Origin: Thalassia testudinum
Taxonomy: Eukaryota; Streptophyta; Magnoliopsida; Alismatales; Hydrocharitaceae
Assembly (NCBI GenBank): GCA_037157565.1
Contig: JAZHRO010000026.1
Location: forward strand, 36,764,501-36,828,500
Direction: 5' to 3'
Length of the DNA stretch: 64,000 nt
This document shows, one piece after another, positions 3,269-64,000 of this stretch (position 1 is the stretch's first letter; each line of letters begins with the position of its first letter). The translations under genes were made by a program, and so were the position numbers. Under the pieces are notes generated by a model that made no database searches, was not told the origin of the DNA, and worked only from the letters and a program-made list of their open reading frames with translations.

Positions 3269-3372
3269 GTCTTTTAAGACGTCTTGGAGGTGGCCCAGAC
3301 GTCGGATAAGACGTCTTGGATCACATCCAGACGTCTTACCAGACGTCTGGGATCGTTTCCAGACTTCTGGAA
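3269..3372 (+). repeat. AGACGTC palindrome array 1 in LTR
   Basis: Seven or so copies of AGACGTC or its complement, several as the full palindrome CCAGACGTCTGG, separated by short spacers (GGATCACAT, GGATCGTTT). The corresponding arrays are 55786-55890 and 62817-62891. Confidence 0.85.
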
Positions 3373-3837
3373 AACAGTTATTTTTCGCACGAGAGATTCG
3401 TCTGCGCGCCTGTGCGTGCAGACCCGCGATTCCTCTCTCTCTCTCTCTCTTTCCCTCTCTCTCTGCGGCTGCAGACCTGCTGCGCACTCTCTCCCTCCTC
3501 CTCGCGCGGCCTTAAAAGGCCACGCCTCCCCTCCTGTCGTCTCCACCGTCCCCTTCCTCTTCTCCTTCCTGTGCGCGAGAGCGAGCGAGCGCGAGGGCGG
3601 CAGCGGCTGCCGCAGTGAGTGCGGAGGAGGTGCGGCATGCGAGGGCGGAGCTCTGCCGTGAGGGCGAGCTCGCCGGAGCGGCTTGGCCGGCCGGCGGAGG
3701 GCGGAGGGCGCAGGGGGCGCGGAACGACACGGAGAGGGACCTGCTGCGGTCTGAGCAGCAGACGCGCGAGGTGCGACGCGGGCGGCGTCGCGAGCGGAAG
3801 CCGGGTGGTGCCCTGTTCTGGAAAAATTTCCAGAATC

Positions 3838-4182
3838 AGACGTCTGGGTTGATAGCCAGACGGCGAGGGAGACGTCTGGAAGATCATACAGACGTCTGAA
3901 AGGTGAGTATTCCGCTTTCTTCTTCCTTCCTGTCGACTGACCGTACTGAGGGAGGGAGTTGGCTGTGCGCAGGCTCGGTGATTCGCCATCCAACGCGAAT
4001 CAGACGTCTGGCTGTTGTACCAGACGGCGGAAGCGACCTCCAGACGTCCGGGGTGACCATAGGACGTCTTGGAGCTAGGCCAGACGTCCCCGCAGACTTC
4101 TGGACGTCTGGGAAACCACGCTGAGCAGGTAATTCTCTAATCCACTTTTTAAGATGTCTGGAAGAAGTTCCAGACGTCTGAT
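3838..4182 (+). repeat. AGACGTC palindrome array 2 in LTR
   Basis: A looser array of AGACGTC, GACGTCTGG and decayed AGACTTC or AAGATGTC words. The matching arrays in the plus-strand element are 56335-56690 and 63320-63670. Confidence 0.8.
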
Positions 4183-5964
4183 TTTGCACAGTATCATCTT
4201 TTTCGACCTGTTTAGGGCCCGTTCGGGCTCCGTTTTCCGCGATTCGAGTTGCGTTCTTTTCAAAATTAATTCCTCTACCCGTCTACAGTAGCTATGCACT
4301 GTTTTGAGACTTTCCTTGTGTTTGATCCTTGTGATAGGACCTGGTTCAGTTGCAGTCTTGGGAGTCACAGAGGCACGCGGGATTCCCGATCACGCCCCCA
4401 TTACTCCCATTGTACCTGGTAGAGTGGCTTTAAGTTATTAATAAAATCTGTTAAATTATGAAACCATAAATAGAACCTAGGACATTGCATGAATCCTAGG
4501 AATGAGAAATAGATGGAATGATAGCTCCTAGGTGTTGCATGAATCCGAGGACTGAAAAATTAGATTGTATGATAGATCCTAGGATATGGCATGAATCCTA
4601 GGATGGGAAAACTAGTGGAATGTATAATACTGCAGTCTTGGAAAATGGAAAGAGATATAAAGCTGCCTGTAATTTGAATTAATAGCTGCCTGTTGTGAAT
4701 AGATAACGTGGTTGAGAACATGGATTGTAAGAATGTGAAACTGGAAAGTGAAACCTGGATGTTTGAGTAAAAAGGATGGAACCCTACGGGGAAGTAGGAG
4801 TAGAACTCCTGGAAAGTGAATGGAATAGTTTTGGGGAAGTGAGCTGGCCCTTGAGTACGGAGTACCAAGGAGAGCGACTGTCCCCCCTGTTTAGTGCAGA
4901 GCGGAGCCAGCCACCCCAGGGACCCAGGGTTAGGACTGGCCACTCTGTACCGACTTGCTGGCCCTCGCGTACGTAGTACCGAGGAGAGTTACTAGTGTAG
5001 GGAGGTACTAGCTACCCCACGGGCCCCGGGGTTCTGCTAGCCTCCCACACCGACTTGTTAGGCCCGCTGGGACAAACCAGGGTAGTCAGGCGAGGGTGCG
5101 CGGACTGTGGAGGGGCAAGGCCCCGGTTTGGTTACTGTGGAGGGGTTGGACCCCTGTTACTGAGAGGGCTCTGCCCTGTACTGGTTCCGTGCTGTGCTTT
5201 GGGCGCACCCGTTAACGGAAACAACTGACCGCGTGCCAGTACGGGTTAGCTACCTGTGCGTTTATCGCGCGTGCCGTAGTCACCGTTACGTCTGTCAGTG
5301 ACCTTGGGGTGGTTGACTGAGGGTAGGATCACCACGGGGGACTCTCCCGGCCAGGAGAGCACCACGTGCTACTTCTACTTTTTGGAAAAGACTGTAATCA
5401 AGATCGTTCCCACGAGGAACATTCGAGATCAAGTAAAAGATCTGAGAAATAAATGAAATAGTGAGACAATTGAAAGATGTAAATAAAGAAAGTAATAGAA
5501 CATAACAGCTACTGTACACTCTACTATTGTCTTTAGTTTTAGTTGCCACTCTACTCAGCGTTTTGCTGACGTGTTACACTCGTTACCTTTTTCAGGACCA
5601 GGTGTTGAGCAGCCAGGGTCAGCGGCTGCAGAGGACGCTGGGCCGAGTAGGGTCCAGTAGAGTTTACCACAGTCTTTTGTACCTCTTTTGTTTCTGTAAT
5701 AGTGAGTAGTTCTTGTTTCCGCTGTACTTTCTTTACCTGCAGTTCATGTTATATGATAAATGTTTTTCTACTGTTGTGGTGGTATCTACTGTAGTAGTTT
5801 CTTCCCTTACTGCTGTACTTTCTTACTGTTAGTTATATTCATGCTGAATGTTGTTTATTTTACTGCTCTTTTGGTTACTTCCTCGTTGGACGACTAGGTC
5901 TTGGGATTAGTCGAGTCGATCCGGTTCTCGTGTCTCGTAGGGACTCGGGAACCGGGTCGTTACA

Positions 5965-8738
5965 ACTAACAAAGAAGCCTTTAGGGGACACACGTATATA
6001 TGCATGCATATATGTATGAGAAGAGGTAGCCACTCTTACATGCATGCATAATGCATAAAGAGACTAGAGTAAGGACATGCCTATATTTGTATCCTTCAGC
6101 ATATAGTGAATGACAGAGCAATCTTCCCCATGATGTAGACAATTCTTAAGGATGAACTTGGCTAAGATCCTTGTGTTCTACTCTCTCCTCTTTTTTATTC
6201 TTTCTAAAATCAATTAATGGATTAGGCATCTGTTGATTTACTGGCTGTATTAGGATGATAAGCACACATTTCAACTCTGATGCCTAGGGTTTGTGCAAGA
6301 AACTGTTGAAATGAGGCATGAAATATGCTCTTAAGGGCAATGATCGATTTAGGTGTGTGGGGAACATGTCACATCTATGCATGTGCAAGCTTGTCTCAAG
6401 CATGCCATTGTGTTCATTTGTATTTTTCAAAATTTTTTGAAATGCATTAAGGTGTATTTATTAAGGGACTTAAATTACTAGTTTTGTCCTGAAAAACTGG
6501 TATAAGGCCCCTATGAGAATAATTTTCTCAAGTGAATCGCGAGTGAGAGACTTCTAAGGGATTTTTAGAGTTCTAAAGATTGATTTAGGCATGATGTCAC
6601 ATCTAATGCTTATTTTCTCTCCTTGCATTGATTCATGAACGCATTAATTGGTTAATGGACTAATTTTGTCCTCAATTAGGTCTAGCCTATCTAAATCAAC
6701 TCTCTCAGAGACTTATTATTCACCATACGAGCTAAGTTGATTTTGAACTATATCATTTAAGTCTACTTGACTTGGTTGAATGAATTAAACTTGATTCCCA
6801 AAGTTGACTTCATTCTCACTTGTTCTTGATGCTTCTCTTGGTTGATTTGAGTCTTCAATTATGATCTTCCTATGTCTTCACCTTGTCAAAATGCATGCAT
6901 CAAATCATTTGTTATTATAAACCAAGTGTCGTTTCCCTTTTATCGAGTTGTCTCTTTAGATTTTCTACTTGAGAGGTTCGAATTAAACTCTTATAAACCT
7001 AAGAAAAATCACAATTTATGGTGAAGTGTAATTCTAAGATATTTTTGGATTTTAGTTCATGATTTATCTGGCTAGAAACTTATTGTATGTTTTAAAAATC
7101 GACTGGGTCAATTGGTTCAACCAATTCAATTAGAAACTAATATCTTACCCGTCTGATTAATCGATTAAGGCAATAAAAGTCAAAATCAATGTGAACCAGT
7201 CAAAATTATGTTAGATCGACCAGTTGGCCTAGTTTGTTTAAAATAGCCATCCGATTTGACTTTTCTCTTAAGACCTAAAAAAAAATAAAAAGAAAAAAAA
7301 AATACATGTGACTTCACACACTACACTTATACCCCCATGATCCATGTGTTCTTCAAAGTTAGACTATTAATTTTGATTATACTTTTTATTTTTGTTTAGC
7401 ATTTGCTGAAAGTAATGTCACTTTTAGTGTAATTAGAGTGATGAAATAACTTTTCCAACTATATTTTTTTATTAAATATCTATTCAACTCGATTGGACAT
7501 ACCTAATTAAATCAATGTAAATTAAATCAAAGATCTCACCATTCGATTTATTTATTTATTTTATTTTTTCACATCCTGACATCATCACCAGTTCAATAAT
7601 ATAAATCGCTAGTTAAACGATTAAATTAAAAAGTACTGTTATAAATACTTGAGACAAAGATAGCTTTCCCATCGTATGTAACCAAGATAGCTTCCCCATT
7701 GTTACAAATCAACGCTGGACTGATTCAATGACCAACCCAATTTTTAAAATATTATTTTAAATCAAATGTGACTTCCTTTAGTCAAGTTGTCTTTTTCGAT
7801 TTTCCACTTGAGAAGTTCGTCAATTGATCTCTTATCACAATTTATGCTTAACTGTAATTCTGGGCTATTTTTGGGTTCCAGTTGTGATTTATCAGGCCGC
7901 TCCCACTTCCCCATAGTATGTAACAAAATCCCTTTTCCAATTGACCCTTTTGGTGTTCCCTTCGCTAAAGCTAAGTGCGGTCTGACGGTAAGGTACACTT
8001 CCCGCTTGTATACATGTTACTCCTTGTGATTTAGAGCTACCTTAAACTCTTGTAGGGACAAAGATAGCTTTCGTGAATGCTGAAAGGCCTCCTCAAGCTT
8101 TGATGTTAGGACCATTTTCTCTGCGCTAAAGTTAACTCCTCTTGCATATGGTTCCAATGTGAGTGGTTTTCTTCTTTATTGTATGACAACGACTCTCATA
8201 TACACATAGCTTATTAATTAGACATGTCTCTTTCTGCTTTTATGGTTGTAAGTAATGAGTCATTGTCCAGAAACAAGACCTTCTACTTGTATCAAGCAAC
8301 CTTTAGTTTATAGCTTTTTGTTTTGATTTTACCCTCTTGTGAAGAGAAGGACGAATAAAATTCTTTTGATCATGTTTGAAGAAAGATTCCATATAAGATC
8401 AATTATACCTTACTGACGGAGAAAAATAAATGTATCTCACGAAAGATGGATTTTCAACATCTAATTAAAGAAACAATTATTTTAATTTTAAGATCCAATC
8501 AGTCTTGGTTTTATTTTGGCCAGAGTAGAGAAACGTGCATCATAATGCACGTTGCAATGTGCAAGTCCCCACTCACATTGGTGATTTTAGTTGATGGTTC
8601 TAACCAATAGTTTTACGTGGTGTATTTGATTTTTCAATGGTGAAAATTAATTTTTATAGGTAAAAAATTAATTTCCATACATAAGTGAAGTAGAAAGTTA
8701 TTTTCATCGATAGAAAAGTAAAATATACTATGATAGGA
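5965..8738. other. AT-rich intergenic DNA with a diverged duplication
   Basis: No supported gene. Around 6905-7065 and 7750-7900 there are two related stretches in the same orientation. Both contain a TTTAG/TCGAGTTGTCTTT word, then ATTTTCTACTTGAGAGGTTCG or a close variant, CACAATTTATG and GTAATTCT. A short stretch at 8055-8160 followed by GTGAGTGG looks exon-like, but its reading frame is interrupted and I cannot name it. Confidence 0.45.
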
Positions 8739-10611
8739 TGATTTTCGCGCAAGATTTGATTTTGAGTATAATATACATCATTGTCGTTATTTGTATTATA
8801 GTCACGTAAAATCTTGAAAAAAAAATATTTGTATTTTTTTTACGAAACTCGCATAGATTTTATCTTTTAATTTGTAAGTACCGATTGTCTTTGGGAGACA
8901 TGAATGCAAGAGTAATTAGATTTTGATTCAAATGGGTAACTTAGACTACTTAACTTTTTTGTCTTTTACTCCTTTGTTATTTTTTTAAGATTTTGATCTT
9001 TGGAAAGAGAAAGTGAACACACCAAACCTAGATTTAACTACACTATCAATTTTGATTTTTGTTAGTGGATATTTGTATAACATTAAAAGTGAGAGTGGAG
9101 AGTGTAGTGGGTATTTTTAATAGTAAAAGTAAGTGAGAATGATTAGAAATTATTATATAGGAGTTTGTATTAAAATGATGGGAAAAACTTGAAAAAAAAC
9201 TTGTGATAACCCTTAACCTTGGTTAACCCCGTTGTCAAACGGGACCTAAAAGACTACATGCATCCAAGTGAGGACATGGTGGTTGTGTATAGTGTGTGAA
9301 CCTAAGGGTGGATGGCTTAATTGATGCTAAGGGAGAGGCATGTATTCACAATGATAAAATGAAGCAATCAAAACAGTGAATCATAAACATAGAAATTAGA
9401 TCTAACATTCACAAATCTAAATGAACATGAAGGAAAACATAGAGACTATAAAAAATATATCAAATCGAATCTCTACACTACTTGAAATAAAGGATGAACA
9501 AGAAAGAAAGGAACCCCTCATGCCGGAATGTGCCTTGAGAGGTCATTGGCTTTGTATGAGGGTGGTGGCTAGACCATGGTCATGAAGACCATTTACATGC
9601 TATCCAAGAAGAGAGGACGACCAACCAAGGTAGGGAAGACCTTGTGGTCGTCCAAGAAGAAAGAAGAGAGGGGGTGTCCTCTCTATGGAGAAGAAAGCAT
9701 GCCCAAGAGAAGAAGAGAGGGTGGAGAGCCCTTCTTCCTAGCCATCCTTGAAGAAGCCTAGGAGGAGCTTCTTCTCCTTGCTAGCTAGTCATCCTTGGAG
9801 GAGGAGGAGCCCTAAAAGGGAAGACCTTGTGAAGGGAAGGGAAAGAAAGAATGCTTGGACTTTCAAGTTTTGGAAGTGAGAAGAATATCTTGTGTGTCCA
9901 TTGAGTTGTGACTTTTATGGGATCCATCTTTGGTTGTCGCCACTTTTGGTGGAAACCACAAGTGGAAATCGCAAGTTGAGATCCACAATTTGGGCACCAC
10001 TTATTTAGGATCTAAATTGGCGACCAACTAATGAGGACTAGAATAGGAAAGTGTTGGGTGTGTGTTTAATTTTAGTAGACTAAAGTTTTGTAAGTTTAGG
10101 TGGGATAGGCTAGGCTAACCTAGGTTGGATTAGGTCCTAGTCTAATTAGGTGGTAGTGGGTCAATTGGACCTAATTAGATTCTACATGAACCTATCTACT
10201 TAGGAATAACTGAGTTCGAATGTGAACCTAATTGGGTCTAACGGAGCCTAATAGAGTCTAGGTGCACCTAATCAGGTAGTGATGAACATAATTAGGTCTA
10301 GGGTGGTCCAATTAGGTGTAAGCACACCTAATCAGTTGTGGGTTAGCCAAATTAGGTCTAGGGGGACCTAATTGCAGTGTGGTCAATCCAATTGTCTCCA
10401 CATTAGTCCAATTGAGTAATAGTGAGCCTACTTGGGAACCTAAGGGGAAATTGGGGAAGGAAAAGTGAAATTGGGATAGTGGATGGTAAGGATAGGGTCA
10501 TGGATAGCAGGATAACACTATAACACTATGGATAGTGTTATCTAGCTTTTGTGAGTATAGGTTTAGGTTATCCTAGATGGAGGTTAGGGATAGGGATAGT
10601 GTGGATAGTGT
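8739..10611. mobile_element. Degraded LTR-like DNA related to 20153-22231 and 25733-28050
   Basis: The start (TGATTTTCGCGCAAG near 8739, then TATAGTCACG and GATTGTCTTTGGGAG) resembles the start of the 25733 element. From about 9300 the text also runs parallel to 26160-27300, ending in a CCTAATT/AATTAGG word array (about 10080-10440). A block near 9200-9250 (AACCCCGTTGTCAAACGGG) looks like the end of another small element nested inside. Boundaries are uncertain and no duplication was found. The 61-codon frame at 9576-9761 lies in this LTR and is not a credible gene. Confidence 0.45.
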
Positions 10612-11125
10612 TGGTGCAAGGACACCATGATTTTTTATTCTAATGATAACAAAATACTTATTATTTGACATTTACATTTGAGTTTAAAATTTTAGGATGA
10701 AATAAAAATGAAAGCAAGTGAGAGGAGTTCAAGCTCGTGTCCATGGTGGATTAGAGGAGCTTGATGGAGGAGACGGAGCATTGCTTAGGGCTAAAGCTTG
10801 AAGAAGGAGGAGAATGAAGAATAGGATAGATGTTCATTGTATTTGTATTTATTCTTCTTTTTGCTCTTTATTTCCTTGGAAGCATCGTAAAGAGCCCAAA
10901 ATATATTAACCTAAGTCCTAGAAATACTTACACATCCTTAAGACACTTAGGCAAACTTTAGAATAAGCCAAAATAGGATTCAGACTATATTATTAGACAT
11001 CCAACAATGATATCAGACGTCTAATAAATACTTTTAAGTCGTCTAATATTTAGATCAGACGCCCAATATCCCTGTAGCCTGCCTTTTACAATAAACACTT
11101 AGGCTCCAGTTGACAAAACTTCAGT
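10612..11125 (+). repeat. 5' LTR remnant of SIRE-type element
   Basis: Aligns with about 12501-13025 of the 3' LTR, including TCAAGCTCGTGTCCATGGTG and the AGACGTC words near 10990-11060. The remaining kilobase of this LTR is deleted, joining directly to interior sequence. Confidence 0.75.
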
Positions 11126-11353
11126 CTAGACGTGCGCCACCGCCTACGAGATATGGAGAAAGTTGAACGCTACTCATGAGAACTCAACTTGGAGAAGGAA
11201 GAAGAAAATGAGACAAACTCTATTTCAATAGAAGAACTTTAAGATGCTATTGAATCTTTATTTTCTGAATATGCGATTGTTAAAAGTGAATGTAAGAAAC
11301 TTAAATCTGAAAATAGAAAAGTTTGAAAACTAAACTATGAAAATAAAATCCAT

Positions 11354-12483: not shown

Positions 12484-12500
12484 AAAAAGGGAGAAATTAT

Positions 12501-14042
12501 TGGTGCAAAGGCACCACAATCATTGATTTTGATGATAACAAAGCACTTGTTATTTGACATTTGCATTTGAGTTTAAGATTTCAAGAGAAAATGCAAATGG
12601 AAGCAAGTGCAAGGAGTTCAAGCTCGCGTCCATGGTGGATTGGAGGAGCTTGATAAAGGAGACGAAGCGTTCCTTAAGGCTAAAGCTTGAAGAAGAAGGA
12701 AAATGAAGAATATGATAGATGCTCATTGTATTTGTATTTATTCCTCTTGTTGCTCTTTATTTCCTTAGAAGCATTGTAAAGAGCCCAAAATATATTAACC
12801 TAAGTCCTAGGAACACTTACACATCCTTAAGATAAGCAAATCTAAGAATAGAATTAGAAAGCCAAAATAGGATTCAGACTATATTATCAAACGTCCAACA
12901 ATGATATCATACGTCTGATAAATACTTTTAAGTCATCTGATATTTAAATCAGATGTCCAATATCCCTATAGCCTGCCTTTTACAATAAATACTTAGGCTC
13001 CAGTCGACAAAACTTTAGTCCAAACGTCCACAGGTCCTATCAAACATCTTGTAACACATTTAGTCGTCTAAAGATACTACTGTTAGGACTAATTATCTCC
13101 AAATATCCTTTGTCAGAATAAAATCCAACCATTAAGATTATACCCTTCCTTCAAACGTTCGTAGAGCCTTTCAGACGTCTAATAAAGAAATGTTGACCTT
13201 GTCAGACCAAATCCAACTGTTAGGTCCTTGGGAATCAATTCCGCAGAGCACCTTTATCTCTACACATCGAATAGCCTTTACAAATGTCCATATCTTTGCA
13301 CTAGAACCTTATTTAGATATGGTCCAAAACAGAAACAAACTCGCATAAAATTAGACATCCAATTTTTAACCCAAACGTCTTAAAATGATATACCAGACGT
13401 CCAATCTAAAACCCTATTTCTGTCCAATGAAATCTGGAACTCTAACCCTTGCATCTGACGACCAAAACATTGATCAGACATCTAACTAGACGTTTGACCC
13501 TAAAATTAGACGTTTGATTTTGCTGTCAGAGTCATTATGACCCTGATTTCGGCCTAATTTGTCTTGGAATCTATCCTAAGGGTACAAGGCCTCTCCTAAG
13601 TCTTCTTGAACCTTTTTAAGGCCTCTATAAATAGAGAACCTCTCCTTTGTGAAGTTATACCTTAAAGATAATTATTTCCACCATTATACACATTTTGTGA
13701 GAGATCAAAAAGAAGAAAATTGTGATCTTGCTCTCCAAGCTCTATACTTCACATCTAAGAGCACTAAATTGCTACATAATCACGCCTATTCATTTCCATC
13801 TTAGGGAAGTCACTTTGCCTTAGCATAGTTTAAATTCACTTGGAACATGAATACCCATGTAGTCAATCAAACCCTACATAATTGCCTGCTTAATCAAACT
13901 TCCTCATGAAAGGGACAACCCTACAAATACATATATATAGGCACTTTTGCGTGTGTATGTAATCGCTTAGTCACAACCTGTTTGGATTGTGCCGAGATGT
14001 ATTTAATTCCGTTAGTAGATGCAACTATTTGCCTTTGACATG
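12501..14042 (+). repeat. 3' LTR of SIRE-type element
   Basis: Begins TGGTGCAAAGGCACC after the polypurine tract and contains numerous AGACGTC-like words between about 12880 and 13515, many decayed to AGACATC, AAACGTC or ACGTTT. A TATA-like CTATAAATAGAG lies at about 13625. No polyprotein frame is present. Confidence 0.65.
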
Positions 14043-23245: not shown

Positions 23246-25732
23246 ATCTGTGTTACGACCCGGTTCTCAGATCCCTACTGCACCCGAGACCGGCCCGCCT
23301 CAACTAATCCGAAGACCTAGTCATCCAACAAGAAATAACCAAAAGCAGGAAAATAAACCACATTCATACATGCAATATAACTAAGCAGAAGAAAAGAGAG
23401 AAGCAGAAAAGAAAGTAGAACAACTATCTTAAAACATAGTACATGCCATCACAACAACAACAGAAAACGTAAAGGAAACAGAAAGTAACAGGAACAGTAA
23501 ACTATGTGTCCATTACTCACTACAACAGTAGGAAAGTGAAAGAGCTGAAAAATGACTACGGCTGGGCTCGACTAGGCCCATCATCCTCTGTAGCCGGAAA
23601 CTCAGGCTGCTCAACTCTTGGTCCTGAATAGGGTTACGAAAAGACAGAGTCAGTGAACACTAAGTAGAGTGGTGTTTACATTATTTAAGTGCAAGTATAG
23701 TAAAAACAACAACAGGTTTATTTCTCATTTCTATTTATCTCATTTATGTGTTTCAAGTTCATGTATTTCTCAAAGTATCCAGGCATTTCTTGATCTTGCA
23801 TGTTCCTCATGCGAACGATCTTGATTGCAGTCTTTTCCGTGGAGTAGAAGGCACACGTGGTACTCTCCTGACCGGGAGAGTCCCTTGTGGTAGTCCTACA
23901 CCCAGTCAACCACCCCGAGGTCACTGTCGAGATGTAGCGAGACTACAGCATGCGTGATAAGCGTATGGGTAGCTACCTCACACTAACATGCGGTCAGTCG
24001 TTTCCGCTAGCGAGTATGCCCAAAGTACAGCACGGAACAGTATAGGGCCTTGCCCTCTCAGAATAGGGGTCTCACCCCTCAAAACCAAACAGGGGTCTCG
24101 CCCCTCCACAGTCCACGTACCCTCATCTGACTACTCTAGTTTGCCCAAAGGGCCTAACAAAGTCGGTGTAAGGTGGCTAGCTGAACCTCGGGTCCCGTGG
24201 GGTGGCTATCTCCCTCTCTACACTAGTAACATGCCTCGGTACCACGTATGCGAGGGCCAACAGGAGTGAATGTAAAGTAGCCAATCCTAACCTCAGGTCT
24301 CAACCCAAGGCTCTACACTAAAAAGGGACAGTTGCTCTCCTTGGTACCGCGTACATAAGGGTCAGCACACTTCCCATCTACATTCCAGATTTCCTTTCAT
24401 CCACAGGAGTTCTACCCCTAATTTCCCGTAGGGTTCATGCTCATATTCATCTCATTTATCTAGGTCCAGATCTCATGTTTCATAACTCGTTCCTCATCCA
24501 TATACAGGCAGCTCGTGTTTTCATAATTCAGTTCTCAATAACATGCAACTTGTGGTTTCATAGTCAATTTCTCAATTACATACAGGCAGCTCGTATTTTA
24601 ACATGCATCTCGTAATTATAATAAAGGCATTTGCTAACAATTTATCTTAACCATGCATTCAAATAAACAGTATAGTTCAAACAGGCTCATTCCACATCCT
24701 AGAGTTCCATCCGACTATTACAACCAAGTACATTCCTATTTAAATATTAACAACTGAGTTAAACCACTCTATAGGGTATCGCAGGAGGAATGTGGGCCTG
24801 TGCCGTAGGCCCCGAACACGCCATCGAAGAGTAACTTGTACCAGCGACCAATGTACATTAGATGAGCTCAAAACACTAGGTACTCAACACGAACACGTAG
24901 AGGAACTCGAGTAGAAAACAATGGTACTTCGTTTGCGGAAATCCGATTCCATTTGGGCCTTAAACGAGCCAAAAATGTAGTTACTGATTAAAATCAGATG
25001 TCTGGGACTAGTCCCAGACGTCTTAAAAGATGTCAGAACTTACCTTACCTTTCCTGCGGCTGATTTAGACATCCATACTCGTTCTGTGACCATCTGGGGG
25101 CAGTTCTAGATGTCAAACAAGATCTCCGATCGTCTAGAAACACCTCCGGACGTCTGGCGACGTGATCAGATGTCTAAAAGTACTTGGGAAAGCGCACTGT
25201 GTGCCTTCCCAAAGCCTGCACCTCCATACGAGCACCAGCAAATGCAATGGTCAGCCGTCATCCCCTGCGCTATGATTTGCATGGTGCAAGAAGATACGTA
25301 CCTCACGATATGGCGCTTTCAGATGTCCGACCTCAGCTTCTGACATCCTAGTGCCTCGCCAGTCGTCTGGATTTCACTCCAGATGTCTAATACTAGAAAA
25401 ATTCCAGTACCAGAACCTCCTCGCAGCTCGTCCCTCTCGCACCTCCGCCCGTAATGGCAGCTCCAGTAGCTACAGAAGCTTGAGCAACTCCTCACTAGCA
25501 TCCTCCTCTCTCCCACGAGCTTCCTCCTTGAGCTCCACTGAGCTCCCGCAGTTGTCTTCCTCCTCCCCTGCTCTCACTCCCTCTCACTCTCTCGCTCTCG
25601 CTCCTCACCGGTGGCTCTCCTTCCTCGCCGCGACTGCAGCAGAGACAGAGGGGAACGTGGTTATAGCAGGAGAAGGTGGAGGTGGCGGTGGCTGGAGTGG
25701 TGTGAGGTGGAGAGGAGAGGAGAAGGGAGGGG

Positions 25733-31025: not shown

Positions 31026-31051
31026 GTCGTCTGATTTGGAAATCAGACGAC
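31026..31051 (+). repeat. Perfect 12-bp hairpin containing AGACGAC
   Basis: GTCGTCTGATTT, loop GG, AAATCAGACGAC. Orthologous hairpins lie at 557-578, 38115-38140 and 45405-45430. Confidence 0.8.
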
Positions 31052-38114: not shown

Positions 38115-38140
38115 GTCGTCTGATTGGAAAATCAGACGAC
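38115..38140 (+). repeat. 11-bp hairpin containing AGACGAC
   Basis: GTCGTCTGATT, loop GGAA, AATCAGACGAC. Family-conserved. Confidence 0.8.
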
Positions 38141-43150: not shown

Positions 43151-43162
43151 GGCATGGGGGTA
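43151..43162 (+). other. Polypurine tract of Athila-like element
   Basis: GGCATGGGGGTA directly abuts the 3' LTR start TGATGAG at 43163. Confidence 0.75.
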
Positions 43163-45912
43163 TGATGAGAACCTCATCATGAGCCATAACTAGCTCATTT
43201 TGACCCAATACAAAGGATAAAAGCTCCTACATAACTCAAGGAAAGGCTTAACTCAGAGAATTCTGAGTTTAAGGAGAAAACAAGTCATAAGGGGTAAAAA
43301 TGCAATTTTACCAGTATAATCTGCATACAGGGTAATTCAGGGTCCAAACACAGGTCAAACAAATCGAATAAGAAGGAAAGTGGGATGATCTGATAAGGGC
43401 TACAGTAATTCCAAGGAACTAAATGATAATCTGTAACCCTAAAGCAAACCCACTTCAATTCACGAGGTTCGAGGCAAAGTAAAAATAGAATAAACCCTCT
43501 AAAATTCATAGAAAAATAATCTCTAGGGTTTAGAACCTTCAATTTGGCCTTCAGAACCCATTTTGACCGACATTGAGAACCATACCCAATTAATAACTTA
43601 ATTTGGGTTTTTGCGTAAATTGACTAGTCAAACAAGGTTTAATCTAGAAATAAAATTCACCATCAGATTCCTTAGGTCCTAATTAGTCATGTATAAAAAC
43701 TTGAGCCTAAGAAGAAACCTTCTTGACCAACTTTACACTTTGGTCCTCATATATTTACTTTTTGGCCCTCAACTTTTGAACCCTCGCATTTCTGCCCCTA
43801 ACTCTCCTTCGTTCTTTGCATACAGGTCCCTCCTGCCAAAACCTGACCAGCACCAAGCTCCGGCGACCTTGCGCGGAGCATGGCGCCGCGCAGGGTAAGG
43901 GGGAGGGTCTGGCAAGACAACCGGGGGCGCCCTGCGTCGTCAGCCGTCGCAGGAACACCCCCCTGGTCGCTGCAACCCACCATACTGGCCGTGCGAACGC
44001 ACGGACGGTATGGGTTTCCATCTCCGGCGTCCTCCGGCGAGGGAGACACGTCATCTCCCTCCGCCTTCCTCTCTGATTCGGCCTCTATAAATACCCCCGT
44101 CGCTCCGCCGTTCTGAGCAGCTCGGTCCTGACGGAGAAAGACCCCCACTTCCTCTCTTCCCACTCCGACAGGAAGCCCTCCAGCTCCGGCGGCCTCCCCT
44201 CTTCCTCCTCGTCGCTCTGCCGCACTACCAGCTGCAGGGTTGCCCTCCCTCGCTCTTCCCGCGCCACGCCGCACCCAGCTGGCGCCTCTCCGGCCCTCTC
44301 CTCGCCGCCGCCCCTTCCCCCGGGCATCTTCTTCTCCGGCGACAGTCGATACGACTGTCGCCCGCTCCGGCCCCTCCTCGTCCTGCTAAGTAGGTAGAAC
44401 TCCTCCTCTTTCTCCCCTCTTCCTTTTCCTCATTTTACATCTTTACTGTTACCCCGATCCGACCAATCGCCCTCACCTTCTCCATCTCCGGCCCCTACTC
44501 CGGCGACCCGCTCCCATCACTCCAGCAACCCACACGGCTCGCCGACCACCGCAGAACCTCCGCCTCCTCACCCTGATCAACCTCCGCCCTTCCACTTCCC
44601 CCAAATCACCCTCTGCAACTCCACCGAACAAACCCATCTCCCGACCCACAGTCCGACCTAGGGTAGCTCTTAGGCTCCGCCCCGCCGCCTGCACACCCCC
44701 CGACCACCTTCGCCGTGCCACGGCGAAGGTCCTCCGCGTTTCTGATTGGGCCGAGAGGCCGTTTCTCTGTGGGCAGGTACCTGCGCTCGTTGCCGCCATT
44801 GTTGAAGCGAAGCAGCTTCGACCTGCTGTCCCAGGTGCGCCGCGCCCAGGTCACGCTCCCAGGCTGTGCGGGGGCATTTCGGCAAAGCGTTAGGCTGCAG
44901 TTGAGGCGAATCCCTCGCGCGAAGGCCTCGCGTAAAGCTACGATTACCAGCTGCTTCCTCCGCGCAGGCGCGAAATTGGGGTGGGACATTTAGTCCCACC
45001 TCGGAAGGCTCTGAAGGAGCGCAGCGGTATAAAGAGAAAAAGTGCTGGAGGCTTATTGCCTCAGCACTCAGGGTGAGGTCCCCTTCACCCGCCTGGTTGC
45101 CCGGTCTCGTCCGCGCTCACGCCCAGCGGACCTGGCCCGACCCGACTTAGACTGACCTGCACTCCTTGCCCAACACGCACGCCGGTGGGCCTGGACCCGG
45201 GCGCGACCCGTACCCGGCAGCTCTGGGAGAGCTTTCCTAAGAGTGGCTTCTGTGAGAGAGAGACGCGGGGGAGGGTAGAGTTAGGTTTTGCCCCTCTGAT
45301 CAAGCTGTGTAAGTGTGCAGGCACAGGTGAAGAAGAACCGTGGAAGAAGACGAAGGCTGAAGGAAGGAGGAGCACCGAGCGGCACTGTAGCAGCGGCGGT
45401 TTAAGTCGTCTGATTGGAAAATCAGACGACGTCCTGAAGGCAAAGAAGGAGAAGGAAGGCGAGGCAGAGGAGGAACACAGAGGCCAAGTGAAGACTCTGC
45501 AGAAGAAGAAGAGCATGAGAAGAAGATCTGAAGAAAGGAAAAGAAGAAAGAAAGAAGAAGAAGAAGAACAGGACCGCTCTGCAGAAGAAAAAGGAAGAGA
45601 CGAGCAGAAACAGCTGAAAGAAGAAGAAGAACATCACCACTGCAGATAAAGAAGAAGAACAAAGGAAGAGAGCAGAAGATCTGAGAAGGAAGAAGAGGAG
45701 AAGCAAAGAGAAAAGAAGAAAAGCCAACAAATTCTCTCTCTCTCTTTCTTTATTTTTGTAAAAGAAACTTGTACCCCTAGAATACAACTTGCTCCCTGAG
45801 TTCGACATCGGGAACTCTTTATTTCCGAGTAACAAATTGTATTAAACTGGTAATCACCTCTCTATACTATACTACGACGAAATAATAAAACTATAGAGGA
45901 AGGTCGCCTCCA
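43163..45912 (+). repeat. 3' LTR of Athila-like element
   Basis: Differs from the 5' LTR by scattered point changes and a few short indels (for example the CTCGTCCGCGCT region and a GAGGCCAAG stretch near 45480). Contains TATAAATA at 44086-44093, the USE-like module at 44992-45067 and the AGACGAC hairpin at 45405-45430. Ends TCGCCTCCA before CCCAA. Confidence 0.92.
44992..45067 (+). promoter_or_regulatory. USE-like box, TATA-like box and hairpin in LTR
   Basis: AGTCCCACCTCG at 44992-45003, then 24 bp, then TATAAAG at 45028-45034, and the hairpin at 45042-45067. Here the stem can extend by one more pair (AGTGCT/AGCACT). Confidence 0.5.
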
Positions 45913-45917
45913 CCCAA

Positions 45918-48309: not shown

Positions 48310-48321
48310 GCTCTGATACCA
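48310..48321 (-). other. Primer binding site (initiator tRNA-Met type)
   Basis: Minus-strand TGGTATCAGAGC, followed by AAGGTCGTC, seven bases inside the 5' LTR. It is identical to the plus-strand element's site. Confidence 0.85.
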
Positions 48322-48327
48322 TCTTGT

Positions 48328-51044
48328 TGTGACCCAATTCCCGGATCTCTACAGGACTTGAGACCGGCTCGCCTCGACTAATCCCAAGACCTAGTCATCT
48401 AATAAGAAATAACCAAAAGCAAGAAAATAAACCACATTCACACATGCAATATAACTAAGCAGAAGAAAAGAGCGAAGCAGTAAAGAAAGTATAACAATTG
48501 TCTCAAAATATAGTACATGCCACCACAACAACAACAGAAAACATAAAGGAAACAGAAAGTCATAGGAACAGTAAATTATGTGTCCATTACTCACTACAAT
48601 AGTAGGAAAGAGAAAGAGCTGAAAAATGACTATGGCTGAGCTCGACTGGGCCCAACACCCTCTACAGCCGGAAACTCGGGTTGCTCAACTCCTGGTCCTA
48701 AACAGGGTTACGAAAAGACAGAGTCAGCGAACACTGAGTAGAATGGTGTTTACATTATTTAAGTGCAAGTACAGTAAAAACAACAACAGGTTTATTTCTC
48801 ATTTATATTTATCTCATTTATGTGTTTCTGGTTCATCTATTTCTCAAAGTATCCAAGCATTTCTTGATCTTGCATGTTCCTCGTGGGAACGATCTTGATT
48901 GCAATCTTTTCCGTGGAGTAGAAGGTACACATGGTGCTCTCCTGGCCGAGAGAGTCCCCCGTGGTAGTCCTACACCCAGTCAACCACCCCGAGGTCACTG
49001 TCAAGACGTAGCGGGATTACGGCACGCATGATAAGCACATGGGTAACTACCCCGCACTGACACGTAGTCAGTCATTTCCGCTAGCGGGTACGCCCAAAGT
49101 ATATCACGAAACAGTATAAGGCCTTGCCCTATTAGAATAGGGGTCTCGCCCCTCAGAACCAAACAGGGGTCTCGCCCCTCCACAATCCGCATACCCTCGT
49201 CTGACTACCCCGATTTGCCCAAAGGGCTTAACAAAGACGATGTAGGGTGGCTAGCTGAACCTCGGGTCCCGTGGGGTGGCTAGCTCCCTCCCTACACTAG
49301 TAGCACGCCTCGGTACCACGTACACAAGGGTCAATAGGAGTTAATATAGAGTGGCCAATCCTAACCCCGGGTCTCAACCCAAGAGAGGCTAGCTCCGCTC
49401 TACACTAAAACGGGATAGTTGCTCTCTTTGGTACCGCATACACAAGGGCCAGCACACTTCCTGTCTACATTCCAGATTTCCTTTCATCCATAGGAGTTCT
49501 ACTCCTAATTTCCCGTAGGGTTCATGCTCATATTCATCACACTTATCCAGGTCCAGATCTCATGTTTCATAACCCGTTCCTCATCCATATATAGGCATCT
49601 TGTGTTTTCATAATTCAGTTCTCAATAACATACAACTTGTGGTTTCACAGTCAATTTCTCAATTACATACAGGCAGCTCGTATTTTAACATGCATCTCGT
49701 AATTATATTAAAGGCATTTACTAGCAGTTTATCTTAACCATGCATTCAAGTAAATAGTACAATTCAAACAGGCTCATTCATTTCTACTCTATGGTTCATT
49801 CCACATCCTAAAGTTCCATCCGACTATTCCAACCAAGTATATTCTTTTTTAAATATTAACAACTGAGTTAAACCACTCTATTGGGTATTACGGGAGGAAT
49901 AGGGGCCTGTGCCGCAGATCTCATCATCTCCGCAGGCCCCGAACATGCCACCGGTTGGTAACCTGTACCAGCGACCAATATACATTAGACGAGCTCAAAA
50001 CAGTAGGTACACAACATGAACACGTAGAGGAACTCGAGTGGAAAACAACGGTACTTCATTTGAAGAAATCTGATTTTGTTTGGGCCTTAAAGAAGCCAAA
50101 AAGGTTGTTACTGATCAAAATCAAACATCTGGGACTAATTCCATACGTCTTAAAAGACGTCAAAACTCACCTTACCCTTCTTGCGGCTGATTCAGATGTT
50201 CAGACTCCCTTTGCGACCATCTGGGGGCAGTTCCAAACATCGGACAAGGTCTCCGATCGTTTAAAAGCACCTCCGGACGTCTAGCGACGTGATCAAATGT
50301 CCAAAAGTACTTGGGAAAGCGCACTGCGCACCTTCCCAAAGCCTACACCTCTGTACGAGCACCCGCAAACGCAATGGTCAGCCGACATCCCCTACGCTAT
50401 GATTTGCATGGCATAGGAAGATACATTCCTCGCGATATGGCGCTTTCAGATGTCCGGCCTCAGCTCCGGACGTCTTGGTGCCTCGCCAGTCGTTTGGACT
50501 TCACTTCAGACATTTGATACTAGAAAAATTCTAGTACTAGAACCTCCTCGCAACTCGCCCCTCTCGCACCTTCGCCCACAGCGGTAGCTCAAGCAGCTGT
50601 AGGAGCTTGAGCAACTCCTCACCAGCATCCTCCTCTCTCCCACGAGCTCCTCCTTGAGCTCCACCAAGCTCCCGCGATCGTCTTCCTCCTCCCCCGCTCT
50701 CACTCCCTCGCACTCTCTCACTCTCGCTCCTCCCTGCTCTCCCCTCGGCGGTGGCTCTCCTTCTTTGCTGCAGCTGCAGCAGAGATGGAGGGGAATGTGG
50801 TTGTAGCAGGAGAAAGTGGAGGTGGCGGTGGCTGTAGTGGTGTGAGGAGGAGAGGAGAGAAGGGAGGGGGTTTATATAGAGGGGTTTTAGGGTTCGGGTG
50901 AGAGGGGAAGGAGAGAGAGAGCGGCCGCTGCGCGCCACCCGCGTGTAAAGCGTAAAACACAGTACGAAAATTTCACTTTCAGACGTCCGGACACGTGTCC
51001 AGAAGTCTTACTGAAACTCTAGATGTCTTAACCGGCTAAATACA
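48328..51044 (-). repeat. 5' LTR of minus-strand Tekay element
   Basis: Plus-strand text begins TGTGACCCAATTCCCGG and ends GGCTAAATACA, then the target copy ATCTG. AGACGTC-like arrays lie at 50115-50530 and 50975-51030, many decayed at CpG. Confidence 0.9.
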
Positions 51045-51049
51045 ATCTG

Positions 51050-55210: not shown

Positions 55211-55278
55211 AAGCATATGAATTAAATAAAAATGATCATGCAAGGATGGGCATTCCAATTGGATAGAAGGTTATTTTC

Positions 55279-55763
55279 TGTTACAGCCCCCAAATTGAAT
55301 TCATGTGGAATCCAGGTCGGATCGTTTCAACTATCCCAAGATCCAATCGCCTAAAGAGTAATAAATCAAACATATCCATTTCCGCACATGTAGTATAACC
55401 AAAAGAAAGAATAAAATGCTGAAAACTGTAAGATAACAATAACTGAAAAGCAGTTCCACAAGAGTAGCATGGTTACAACATAGCCATCACAACTTACTAA
55501 AAAATAGAAATTGAACTACTAGTTCCAAGTTAGATGCTCACGATAACGAGAGGAGAGTCACTACGACAGAAAATAAAAGAGACAACTAAGACTGGACTCT
55601 ACTAGGCCCAGCTCCCTCTGCAGCCGATGGAGTTGGTTGCTCACCTCCCTGTCCTGGATACAAGTAATAGACATCAGCAAAAGTTGAGTAAAGTGGTAAG
55701 TGTACATTCAACTAATACAATTAAATAAAAAGGAGAGTAGTAAACATTTCAGGCAACAGTAAA
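55279..55763 (-). mobile_element. Minus-strand LTR end, Tekay-like
   Basis: Begins TGTTACAGCCCCC and continues with blocks parallel to the 48328 LTR (AATAAATCAAAC, CACATGTAGTATAACC, TACTAGGCCCAGCTCCCTCTGCAGCCG). It is interrupted at 55763 by the plus-strand element, so its other part should lie beyond the window. Confidence 0.55.
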
Positions 55764-58446
55764 CGTTACGAACGCGTGCCCCATACGTCTTTTAAGACGT
55801 CTGGGAGGTGGCCCAGACGTCAGACCAGACGTCTGGGATCACATCCAGACGTCTGACCAGATGTCTGGGATCGTTTCCAGACGTCTGGAAATCAGTTATT
55901 TTCGACACGCGCGGGTCGTCTGCGTGCCTGAGCGCGCAGACCCGCATATTCGTTATTCCCTCTATGGCTGCAGACGCCCTGCCGCGATTCTCTCTCCTCC
56001 TCGCGCGGCCTAAAAAGGCCACGCGCTCCCTCCCATCGCCTCCACCCCTTTCCTCTTCTCCCTCCAGTGCGCGAGAGCGAGCGCGAGAGCGGGCACGGGG
56101 TTGCTGCGACGGCGACGGCTGTAGTGGGCGTGGAGGGGGTGCTGCGTGCGAGAGCGGCGCTCAGCCGTGAGGGCGAGCTCGCCGGGGCTTCTAGGGCCGG
56201 CCGGTGGGAAGCGCAGCGGGCGCGGAACGACGTGGGAGGCCTGCTGCGGCTCGAGCAGCAGGCGCACGAGGTGCGACGAGGCGCGGCGTCGCGAGCGGAG
56301 GACGAGTCGCACCCTGGTTCTGGAAAAATTTCCAGAATCAGACGTCTGTGCTGATAGCCAGACGGCGGGGTCGACGTCTGGAAGACTGTCCAGACATCTG
56401 AAAGGTGAGTTTTCTGTCTTCTTCTTCCTTCCTGTCGACTGACCGTACTAAGGGAGAGAGATGGGTGTGCGCAGGCTCGGTGATTTGCCATCCAACGCGG
56501 ATCAGACGTCTGGCTGTAGTACCAGACGGCGGGAGCGACCTCCAGACATCCAGGGTGACCATCGAACGTCTGGGAGCTAGGCCAGACATCCCCGCAGACT
56601 TCTGGACGTCTGAGAAACCATGCTGAACAAGGTAATTCTCTGATCAACTTTTTAAGACGTCTAGAAGAAGTTCCAGACGTCTGATTTTACACAGTTTCGT
56701 CGTTTTCAACCCGTTTAGGGCCCGTTCGGGTTCCGTTTTCCGCGATTCGAGTTGCGTTCTTTTCGGAATTAATTCCTCTACCCGTCTACAGTAGCTATAC
56801 ACTGTTTTGAGATACTCCTTGTGTTTGATCCTTGTGATAGGACCTCGTTCCGTTGCAGTCTCAGGGGTCGCGGAGGCACGCGGGATTCCCGACCACGCCC
56901 CCATTACTCCCGTTGTACCTGGTAGAGTGGCTTTAAGTTATTAATAAAATCTGTTAAATTATGGAACCATAAATAGAACCTAGGACATTGCATGAATCCT
57001 AGGAATGAGAAATAGATGGAATGATAACTCCTAGGTGTTGCATGAATCCTAGGGCTGGAAAACTAGATTGTATGATAGATCCTAGGATATGGCATGAATC
57101 CTAGGATGGGAAAACTAGTGGAATGTATAATGCTGCAGTCTTGGAAAATGGAAAGAGATATAAAGCTGCCTGTTGTGAATAAATAACGTGGTTGAGGACA
57201 TGGATTGTAAGAATGTGAAACTGGAAAGTGAAACCTGGATGTTTGAGTAAAAAGGATGGAACCCTACGGGGGAATTAGGAGTGGAACTCCTGGAAAGAGA
57301 AAGGAATGGAACTGAGACGTAGTTGTGTACCGTCTCTTGGGTACGTAGTACCAAGGGAAGTACCTGTACCTATTTAGTGCAGAGTGGGGCCAGCCACCCC
57401 AGGGACCCGGGGTTAGGACCGGTCGCTCTGTACCGACTTGCTGGCCCTCGTGTACGTAGTACCGAGGAGAGCTACTAGTGTTAGGAGGGCACTAGCTACC
57501 CCACGGGCCCCGGGGTTCTGCTAGCCTCCTACACCGACTTGTTTAGGCCCACTGGGGCAAACCAGGGTAGTCAGGCGAGGGTGCGCGGACTGTGGAGGGG
57601 CAAGGCCCCGGTTTGGTTACTGTGGAGGGGTTGGACCCCTGTTACTGAGAGGGCTCTGCCCTGGACTGGTTCCGTGCTGTGCTTTGGGCGCACCCGTTAA
57701 CGGAAACGACTGATCGCGTGCCAGTACGGGTTAGCTACCTGTGCGTTTATCGCACGTGCCGTAGTCACCGTTACGTCTGTCAGTGACCTTGGGGTGGTTG
57801 ACTGAGGGTAGGATCACCACGGGGGACTCTCCCGGCCAAGAGAGCACCACGTGCTACTTCTACTTTTTGGAAAAGACTGCAATCAAGATCGTTCCCACGA
57901 GGAACATTCGAGATCAAGAAAAAGATCTGAGGAATAAATGAAATAGTGAGACAATTGAAAGATGTGAATAAAGAAAGTAATCGAACATAACAGCTACTGT
58001 ACACTCTACTATTGTCTTTAGTTTAGTTGCCACTCTACTCAGGGTTTTGCTGACGTGTTACACTCGTTACCTTTTTCAGGACCAGGTGTTGAGCAGCCAG
58101 GGTCAGCGGTTGCAGAGGACGCTGGGCCGAATAGGGTCCAGTAGAGTTACCACTGTCTCTTGTACCTTTTTTGTTACGTTGTAGTGAGTAGTTCTTGTTT
58201 CCGCTGTACTTTCTTTACCTGCAGTTCAAATTATATTATGAATGTTGTTCTACTGTTGTGGTGGTACATACTGTGGTAGTTTCTTTCCTTACTGCTGTAC
58301 TTTCTTACTGTTAGTTATATTTATGCTGAATGTGGTTTATTTTACTGCTCTTTTGGTTACTTCCTCGTTGGACGACTAGGTCTTGGGATTAGTTGAGTCG
58401 GTCCGGTTCTCGTGTCTCGTAGGGACTCGGGAACCGGGTCGTTACA
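55764..58446 (+). repeat. 5' LTR of plus-strand Tekay element
   Basis: Ends GGGTCGTTACA. Contains AGACGTC array 1 (55786-55890), array 2 (56335-56690) and a CG-rich block between them. Array 1 has one more 32-bp unit than the 3' LTR. Confidence 0.92.
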
Positions 58447-58449
58447 AGA

Positions 58450-62714: not shown

Positions 62715-62761
62715 GTTTGTTATGGTTAATTGGACATCTTTTCCCGCACCCTAGTTGGCAC

Positions 62762-62781
62762 AAGTTTCGGGGACGAAACTT
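62762..62781 (+). repeat. Perfect inverted repeat before 3' LTR
   Basis: AAGTTTCG, GGGA, CGAAACTT. Characteristic of Tekay/Del-type elements just upstream of the polypurine/LTR junction; also at 28263-28282. Confidence 0.8.
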
Positions 62782-62799
62782 CCTTTGAGTTTATTATAT

Positions 62800-64000
62800 T
62801 GTTATGAACGCGTGCCCCAGACGTCTTTTAAGACGTCCGGGAGGTGGCCCAGACGTCGGACCAGACGTCTGGGATCACATCCAGACGTCTGGAAATCAGT
62901 TATTTTCGACACGCGCGGGTCGTCTGCGCGCCTGAGCTCGCAGACCTGCATATTCGTTATTCCCTCTGCGGCTGCAGACACCCTGCTGCGATTCTCTCTC
63001 CTCCACGCGCGGCCTTAAAAGGCACGCGCTCCCTTCCGTCGCCTCCACCCCTTTCCTCTTCTCCTTCTAGTGCGCGAGAGCGAGCGCGGGGTTGCTGCGG
63101 CGGCGACGGCCGCAGTGGGCGCGGAGGGGGTGCTGCATGCGGCGCTCAGCCATGAGGGCGAGCTCGCCGGGGCTGCCAGGGCCGGCCGGTGGGAAGCGCA
63201 GCGAGCGCGGAACGACGTGGGAGGCCTGCTGCGGCTCGAGCAGCAGGCGCACGAGGTGTGACGAGGCTCGGCGTCGCGAGAGGAGGGCGAGTCGTGCCCT
63301 GGTTCTGGAAAAATTTCCAGAATCAGACATCTGTGCTGATAGCCAGACGGCGGGGTCGACGTCTGGAAGACTGTCCAGACGTCTGAAAGGTGAGTTTTCC
63401 GTCTTCTTCTTCCTTCCTGTCGACTGATCGTACTAAGGGAGAGAGATGAGTGTGCGCAGGCTCGGTGATTTGCCATCCAACGCGGATCAGACGTCTGGCT
63501 GTAGTACCAGACGGCGGGAGCGACCTCCAGACATCCAGGGTGACCATCGAACGTCTGGGAGCTAGGCCAGACATCCCCGCAGACTTCTGGACGTCTGGGA
63601 AACCACGCTGAACAAGGTAATTCTCTGATCAACTTTTTAAGACGTCTAGAAGAAGTTCCAGACGTCTGATTTTACACAGTTTCGTCGTTTTCGACCCGTT
63701 TAGGGCCCGTTCGGGTTCCGTTTTCCGCGATTCGAGTTGCGTTCTTTTCGAAATTAATTCCTCTACCCGTCTACAGTAGCTATACACTGTTTTGAGATAC
63801 TCCTTGTGTTTGATCCTTGTGATAGGACCCCGTTCCGTTGCAGTCTCAGGGGTCGCGGAGGCACGCGGGATTCCCGACCACGCCCCCATTACTCCCGTTG
63901 TACCTGGTAGAGTGGCTTTAAGTTATTAATAAAATCTGTTAAATTATGGAACCATAAATAGAACCTAGGACATTGCATGAATCCTAGGAATGAGAAATAG
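62800..64000 (+). repeat. 3' LTR of plus-strand Tekay element (cut by window end)
   Basis: Starts TGTTATGAACGCG. Colinear with the 5' LTR to the window edge, but lacks 32 bp of array 1 and several short pieces of the CG-rich block (near 63075 and 63135). Confidence 0.92.

What the first reader, a model, noticed from the sequence alone, without database searches (positions are those of the whole stretch)
3269..63680. The same palindrome AGACGTCT is arrayed in LTRs of unrelated retrotransposon families
Seen: clusters of AGACGTC, usually as CCAGACGTCTGG, occur in Tekay LTRs (3269-3372, 3838-4182, 24985-25390, 50115-50530, 55786-55890, 56335-56690, 62817-62891, 63320-63670), in the SIRE-type copia LTRs (10985-11060, 12880-13515), in the 25733-28050 element (27368-27605), and as a conserved hairpin in the Athila-like LTRs. 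These families are not homologous elsewhere in their LTRs. Known: GACGTC is the ACGT-containing C-box bound by plant bZIP factors. Inference: several retrotransposons in this genome have converged on, or exchanged, the same host-factor or silencing-related element. I know of no description of this sharing.
Basis: partly seen in the sequence, partly recalled or inferred. Interest (0 to 1): 0.75.

Follow-up and report, generated by a model that had tools for sequence, protein, structure and literature searches.

The report
Paired palindromes shared by unrelated retrotransposons
In this plant genome several unrelated families of jumping genes carry, in their long terminal repeats, the same short DNA palindrome in pairs exactly 20 letters apart, which suggests that they depend on the same, still unidentified, DNA-binding protein.

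Summary
The core observation is real and bigger than claimed, with some details overstated. AGACGTCT occurs 29 times in the window (0.68 expected), but 25 of 29 lie in one LTR group (TekA); only genome copies make the cross-family case. In the 4.26 Gb genome AGACGTCT occurs 988,779 times, against 29,952 for the same-composition palindrome AGTCGACT. The new fact is spacing: GACGTC pairs exactly 20 bp apart occur 478,420 times, against 7,728 for all spacings of 13-19 bp together. Arrays with such pairs occur in chromodomain Gypsy LTRs, a Copia SIRE-type U3 (up to 8 pairs upstream of the TATA box) and a 2.3-kb LTR-like repeat; single pairs occur in two Athila-like loci. Cross-family module similarity is no greater than site preference predicts, which favours convergence over exchange. 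The bZIP C-box idea is weakened: TGACGTCA is not enriched. Best reading: phased arrays for one dimeric host DNA-binding protein serving several families. The protein, and whether it activates or silences, are unknown. My searches of an open-licence paper library listed no earlier description.

The parts
3244..5965 (+). Solo TekA LTR; site arrays at 3265-3348 and 3838-4179
   Evidence: 88.9% match to 55762-58447; 10 AGACGTCT, 7 pairs 20 bp apart
55765..58446 (+). 5' LTR of a TekA chromodomain Gypsy element; arrays 55795-55886 and 56340-56682
   Evidence: Met-type PBS string at 58450; 8 AGACGTCT, 6 pairs; protease, RNase H, integrase and Chromo domains downstream
62797..64000 (+). 3' LTR of the same element, cut by the window end; arrays 62819-62890 and 63325-63667
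   Evidence: 92.6% match to 55765-57015; 7 AGACGTCT, 5 pairs
48321..51046 (-). TekB LTR (5'; outer end approximate), sites at 50275-50475 and 50981-51028; TATA-like box near 50880
   Evidence: Met-type PBS string at 48310 on the - strand; 5 sites, 1 pair; TATA read from sequence
23246..25732 (-). TekB LTR (3'), interrupted by the 25733-28050 insertion and continuing at 28051-28236; array 24996-25388
   Evidence: 86% match to 48321-50869; 8 sites, 3 pairs over both pieces
25733..28050 (.). E3: 2.3-kb LTR-like insertion (TG...CA, 5-bp target duplication AGGGG read from sequence); array 27373-27603
   Evidence: 6 aligned sites in 21 copies, pairs 20 bp apart; 2 pairs in the window copy
10600..11133 (+). 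Truncated SIRE-type Copia LTR with a 20-bp site pair at 10995/11015
   Evidence: 86% match of 10611-11133 to 12500-13027; pair
12500..13760 (+). SIRE-type Copia LTR (3' end approximate); five strict-pattern sites 12951-13483 and more decayed ones in U3, upstream of a TATA-like box at about 13622; no 20-bp pair left
   Evidence: related LTRs in L059 flank a copia-type gag
38115..38140 (+). Hairpin GTCGTCTGAT/ATCAGACGAC in an Athila-like LTR (35865-38624); no intact GACGTC pair
   Evidence: Asp-type PBS string at 38630
45405..45430 (+). Same hairpin in the second Athila-like LTR (43162-45912)
31026..31051 (+). Diverged copy of the hairpin in the solo Athila-like LTR 28777-31638 (left end approximate)

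Best explanation
The sites are phased protein-binding arrays. The unit is a pair of YYRGACGTCYRR palindromes whose centres are exactly 20 bp apart, about two helical turns; pairs are often joined by 12- or 22-bp steps. I infer that one dimeric, sequence-specific host DNA-binding protein occupies neighbouring sites cooperatively on one face of the helix and acts as a transcriptional activator of the LTR promoter. Different retrotransposon lineages would have acquired and multiplied the same site independently, partly by tandem duplication, because copies with the array were expressed and spread. Shown: the sites, spacing, placement, sharing across families and CpG decay. Inferred: the protein, cooperativity, activation and selection.
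For: Genome-wide 478,420 pairs at 20 bp, 85,986 at 12 bp, but 7,728 for the seven spacings of 13-19 bp together. Of 244,155 matches with 21-35 bp spacing, 96 of the 100 listed places, counted by eye and partly repeats of one another, are 22 or 32 bp. A period scan over 110 non-independent distances from 12 arrays peaks at 10.0 bp, R 0.70. SIRE-type U3: 72 GACGTC in 21 copies against a shuffle mean of 1.3; the second LTR of L059 has 16 sites in 8 pairs, all upstream of its TATA-like box. 246 of 271 held sites have R..Y flanks. TekA and TekB align over 1.2 kb of the 3' half of the LTR but little in the array half, yet both keep arrays. In 11 same-strand comparisons between families, 3 gave a BLAST match, of 24-36 bp; two of the three lie across a pair.
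Against: No binding, expression or chromatin data, and no plant factor known to me with this exact site. In the copies sampled the sites are no more conserved than the rest (p 0.36 SIRE, 0.21 E3), so selection is only inferred from subfamilies. Tekay has a second array downstream of its TATA-like box, and the Athila-like pair lies near the 3' end of the LTR, not in an evident promoter. The window's Athila-like LTRs have an inverted repeat without intact palindromes. Genome-wide counts do not by themselves place sites in LTRs.
Confidence: 0.5

Rival explanations
1. A silencing or chromatin factor of the host recognises the pairs, as REM-GDE1 does at Arabidopsis siren loci; the elements carry them despite, or in balance with, silencing.
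For: Precedent: REM-GDE1 recruits Pol IV to spaced repeats of a short motif (PMC12270911, passages). The CpG decay of the sites suggests that they were methylated.
Against: The siren motif TTTTGCTTAT has other letters. Keeping and multiplying a site that only silences is hard to explain in several expanding families.
Confidence: 0.15
2. An element-encoded anti-silencing or activating protein binds the arrays, VANC-like, and other families exploit it.
For: Arrays of a short motif multiplied by tandem duplication resemble VANC targets (PMC5735166, passages); 32-bp tandem arrays and a duplication shifted by 52 bp are seen.
Against: The VANC21 motif is rare in other elements while this one is shared by Gypsy and Copia. 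No candidate protein: 29 ORF pieces searched in Pfam gave retroelement domains in 5 and otherwise only sub-threshold hits, one of them HALZ (E 0.004) in L070. These are a part of the ORFs present.
Confidence: 0.12
3. The pairs act as hairpins in RNA or single-stranded DNA (packaging, dimerisation, siRNA source), not as protein sites in duplex DNA.
For: Six of six chosen modules fold better than the shuffle mean, z -3.8 to -9.0. The window's Athila-like LTRs keep a perfect 10-bp inverted repeat without intact palindromes.
Against: Any two palindromes pair, so folding is automatic. Over 35 distinct pairs, complementarity exceeds partner shuffles at inner position 3 of 7 (p 0.024) and outer position 3 of 10 (p 0.018), uncorrected. 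A hairpin would not need the same letters in every family.
Confidence: 0.12
4. The modules were exchanged between families by recombination or template switching, and the sharing reflects history rather than selection for a factor.
For: The best TekA-SIRE match is 36 bp at 81% across a pair.
Against: Best cross-family similarity is no greater than that of column-shuffled sites in six of six comparisons, p 0.18-0.77. The test has limited power for short modules and few Athila and E3 pairs.
Confidence: 0.1

Closest known systems
ONSEN heat-response element (HSFA2 site in an LTR)
   Same: A retrotransposon LTR carries a host transcription-factor site that drives it (PMC3907296, passages)
   Different: One family, heat element nTTCnnGAAn; here one site is shared by Gypsy and Copia lineages, in spaced pairs, and the factor is unknown
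VANDAL/VANC anti-silencing motif arrays
   Same: Short motif arrayed in non-coding parts of elements and multiplied by tandem repeats (PMC5735166, passages)
   Different: VANC21 motif is YAGTATTAY, in one orientation, rare in other elements; here a palindrome with fixed 20-bp spacing across families
CLSY3/CLSY4 motif 1 bound by REM-GDE1
   Same: Repeats of a short motif with strict spacing bound by a multi-protein complex (PMC12270911, passages)
   Different: Other letters (TTTTGCTTAT, 1-bp spacer); the CLSY3 peak motif occurs 223 times in Arabidopsis (PMC8752594, passage) against close to a million AGACGTCT here
bZIP C-box and as-1-like tandem TGA sites
   Same: GACGTC core; the spacing of tandem sites matters for TGA proteins (PMC9360754, passages)
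   Different: The TGA palindrome is TGACGTCA, not enriched here; flanks here are mostly A/G..T/C, and 20 bp is the main step

Membership tests
bZIP C-box (TGA type, TGACGTCA) | Core GACGTC | tested here: met
bZIP C-box (TGA type, TGACGTCA) | T..A flanks giving TGACG half-sites | tested here: not met
   0 of 271 held sites; TGACGTCA 19,018 genome-wide, AGACGTCT 988,779
bZIP C-box (TGA type, TGACGTCA) | Binding by a bZIP protein | not testable with these tools
   No binding data
VANC-type target array | Motif YAGTATTAY in one orientation | tested here: not met
   By comparing letters: this motif is the palindrome YYRGACGTCYRR; no scan for YAGTATTAY was run
VANC-type target array | Growth by tandem duplication | tested here: met
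   32-bp arrays in TekA; 62-bp duplicate shifted by 52 bp, 96.8% identical, in L001
VANC-type target array | Confined to one element family | tested here: not met
REM-GDE1 / CLSY3 CLSY4 motif 1 | TTTTGCTTAT repeats with 1-bp spacer | tested here: not met
   By comparing letters with the motif; no scan was run
Host-factor site captured by an LTR (ONSEN-like) | Site in the promoter part of the LTR | tested here: inconclusive
   Yes for SIRE-type LTRs (upstream of TATA in L059 and window); one of two arrays in TekA and TekB; not settled for E3; Athila-like pair near the LTR 3' end
Host-factor site captured by an LTR (ONSEN-like) | Bound by a host factor that activates transcription | not testable with these tools
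   No expression or binding data

The most novel reading that the evidence does not exclude
A parasite-wide regulon: one trans-acting protein reads a 20-bp-spaced palindrome code at up to a million LTR sites and co-regulates unrelated Gypsy and Copia lineages, which converged on the code independently. The elements may also act as a sink for that protein.
Probability: 0.45. Interest if true: 0.87.

Novelty: new variant of a known kind. Interest (0 to 1): 0.76.

Why it matters
LTR capture of host transcription-factor sites is known family by family. Here one site with one strict spacing recurs in at least three otherwise unlike LTR families of one genome as arrays, and in a fourth as single pairs. 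If one factor drives or silences them all, it would help explain how unrelated families expanded together in a large plant genome and give a direct handle on it: identify the protein and many elements can be tested at once. The strict spacing makes the idea cheap to test.

Tried and rejected
Chance or base composition: rejected by per-element dinucleotide shuffles and the same-composition CpG palindrome AGTCGACT.

A single-family effect from nested or chimeric LTRs: rejected by the element map, by SIRE-type and E3 copies from elsewhere in the genome, and by 5 of 13 arbitrarily placed loci with 20-bp pairs (7 of the 20 stretches asked for did not exist).

Site constraint within copies: not found. 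General hairpin covariation: not found. Exchange of modules: no support.

Athila: I first took the L006 pair and the window hairpin to be at the same place. The BLAST blocks do not show this: the hairpin lies before, and the L006 pair after, a GAAGAAG-rich stretch. That they are one module is inference.

E3 lineage: not resolved. No sequence follows its end in the same register in five copies, though parts of the flanks are alike; its start was not found in the 5 upstream stretches; a Met-type PBS after one end gave 0 matches. SIRE reverse transcriptase: not found in 8 of the 31 ORFs of L070; 1 of 2 ORFs tested of L059 is a copia-type gag; 10 window ORFs gave no Pfam match. The organism could not be named (2 papers, neither helpful). 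One IMG/VR contig holds an AGACGTCT pair at 20 bp, taken as chance. Paper searches for the motif letters: 249 papers, 20 listed, none on plant retrotransposons by title; the listings showed nothing describing this sharing. One search assigned 100 listed pairs by spacer: 64 Tekay, 30 SIRE, 1 Athila, 5 unassigned, two of these because I mistyped Tekay spacers.
Full report
What is in the window. AGACGTCT occurs 29 times against 0.68 expected from shuffles. The window is a nest of LTR elements. TekA LTRs lie at 3244-5965 (solo), 55765-58446 and 62797-64000; TekB LTRs, on the minus strand, at 48321-51046 and 23246-25732 plus 28051-28236. Athila-like LTRs (35865-38624, 43162-45912, solo 28777-31638) are so called because an Asp-type primer string follows at 38630; no Pfam domain supports the name, and primer and lineage names are recalled. 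SIRE-type LTRs lie at 10600-11133 and 12500-13760. An LTR-like 2.3-kb insertion (E3, 25733-28050) interrupts one TekB LTR.

Where the sites are. Of the 29 exact sites 25 are in TekA, 1 in TekB, 2 in SIRE-type LTRs, 1 alone at 554. Counting CpG-decayed forms, RGA(CG/CA/TG)TCY is 15, 13 and 12 in the TekA LTRs, 5 and 8 in TekB, 2 and 5 in the SIRE-type LTRs and 6 in E3, each against a shuffle mean of at most 0.63; 0 in each of the three Athila-like LTRs; and near background elsewhere. Pairs 20 bp apart: 7, 6 and 5 in TekA, 1 and 3 in TekB, 1 and 0 in the SIRE-type LTRs, 2 in E3. So in the window alone the cross-family case is thin, and it had to be tested on the genome.

Genome counts. The window belongs to an unnamed 4.26 Gb genome, a plant by its elements (inference). 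AGACGTCT: 988,779; reversed control TCTGCAGA 93,763. The same-composition CpG palindrome AGTCGACT: 29,952, its reversed control 72,259. CCAGACGTCTGG: 64,059 against 424 for the reversed control. TGACGTCA: 19,018, reversed control 59,525. In 130 kb of 13 arbitrarily placed loci AGACGTCT occurred 11 times against 1.0 expected, fewer than the roughly 30 that the genome mean would give; all 11 lie in the clusters of L005, L006, L007 and L013. Whole-genome counts do not place sites in LTRs; only the sampled loci do.

Spacing. In the window and in the first hundred places on contig 1 the commonest distance between sites is 20 bp, with 12, 32, 40, 42 and 52 among the next. GACGTC-N14-GACGTC (20 bp) occurs 478,420 times (reversed control 3,075). 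Spacings of 13-19 bp together give 7,728 (control 13,078); 12 bp gives 85,986 (control 5,715); 21-35 bp gives 244,155 (control 53,356), and of its 100 listed places 96 by eye are 22 or 32 bp, some being repeats of one another. A period scan over 110 distances from 12 arrays peaks at 10.0 bp (R 0.70); the distances are not independent, and single steps such as 69 bp are less well in phase.

Families. Twenty SIRE-type U3 copies plus the window copy hold 72 GACGTC against a shuffle mean of 1.3, at 16 or 19 aligned positions depending on the cut-off, many 20 bp apart. L059 has two LTRs (93.4% alike), a Met-type primer string at 2630 and a copia-type gag (PF14223, E 1.6e-9) between them. Its second LTR has 16 sites in 8 pairs, its first 14 sites in 6 pairs, all upstream of TATA-like boxes. 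The window SIRE-type LTR aligns with it over its first 458 bp at 71% and over shorter pieces. Pieces of another copy, L070, gave no copia domain (8 ORFs). Twenty E3 copies plus the window share 6 sites. Two Athila-like loci each hold one pair: in L006 about 240 bp from an Asp-type primer string; L005 is 73% like L006 over 1.5 kb, and its own such string is 4 kb away. The window's Athila-like hairpin looks like a changed form of this pair, but BLAST blocks do not put the two at the same place. Of the 13 arbitrarily placed loci 5 hold a 20-bp pair: two Athila-like, two Tekay-like, one E3. Of 100 listed pairs on the first 0.46 Mb of contig 1, 64 were assigned to Tekay, 30 to SIRE, 1 to Athila and 5 to none, two of these by my typing error.

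Convergence or exchange. In 11 same-strand BLAST comparisons between families, 3 gave a match, of 24-36 bp; the TekA-SIRE and SIRE-Athila ones lie across a pair. The best cross-family similarity outside the hexamers is no greater than that of column-shuffled sites in six of six comparisons. TekA and TekB align over 1.2 kb of the 3' half of the LTR; in the array part one search shows a 39-bp match across one pair and an off-diagonal one of 36 bp, and a 153-bp match at 71% between other copies over the last pair. Both have arrays. Turnover of sequence with retention of site type and spacing is what selection for binding arrays predicts. Within copies the sites are not more conserved than their neighbours; losses are mostly CpG transitions (CG 123, CA 82, TG 81 of 315 SIRE cells), as expected of methylated dead copies (inference).

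Hairpin reading. Six of six chosen modules fold better as RNA than their shuffle means (z -3.8 to -9.0; for the window Athila hairpin 2 of 200 shuffles did as well), but palindromes always pair. Over 35 distinct pairs complementarity exceeds partner shuffles at inner position 3 of 7 (p 0.024) and outer position 3 of 10 (p 0.018), uncorrected. The Athila hairpin and the nested fold in L059 are the best hints that the dyad of the pair itself matters.

Mechanism. I favour arrays for a dimeric host DNA-binding protein acting on the promoter. The SIRE-type arrays stand upstream of the TATA-like box; Tekay has one array upstream and one downstream. 246 of 271 held GACGTC sites have R..Y flanks. Nothing here tells activation from silencing, and I name no protein.

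Known systems. ONSEN shows an LTR using a host heat factor (PMC3907296, passages). VANC targets are arrayed motifs spread by tandem repeats (PMC5735166, passages). REM-GDE1 reads a spaced motif and recruits silencing (PMC12270911, passages). TGA bZIP proteins bind TGACGTCA and tandem sites (PMC9360754, passages). None of these, in the passages seen, has this site, spacing and cross-family sharing. My searches (open-licence library, listings only) showed no description of it; that is not proof of absence.

Noticed in passing
window 35863-45916: Athila-like element with 98% identical 2.75-kb LTRs and an internal region of only 4.5 kb; its 697-aa ORF has no Pfam match, so it may be non-autonomous.
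   Followed up: no
window 25733-28050: E3: LTR-like repeat; the first look gave 3,414 candidates genome-wide, the best about 94% alike; nothing follows its end in the same register in five copies checked.
   Followed up: partly
L059 5025-5105: Four sites at 20-22-20 bp fold as one nested stem in which the spacers are also partly complementary (z -9.0).
   Followed up: partly
L010 1416-1606, L011 6375-6469, L013 2348-2537: Decayed sites about 86 and 95 bp apart with no window match; possibly one further family.
   Followed up: no
L071 6926-6953: A single AGACGTCT pair at 20 bp in an IMG/VR contig, taken as chance.
   Followed up: partly
window 3897-4000: TekA array flanked by intron-like GTGAGT...GCGCAG signals downstream of the TATA-like box, read by eye.
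   Followed up: no
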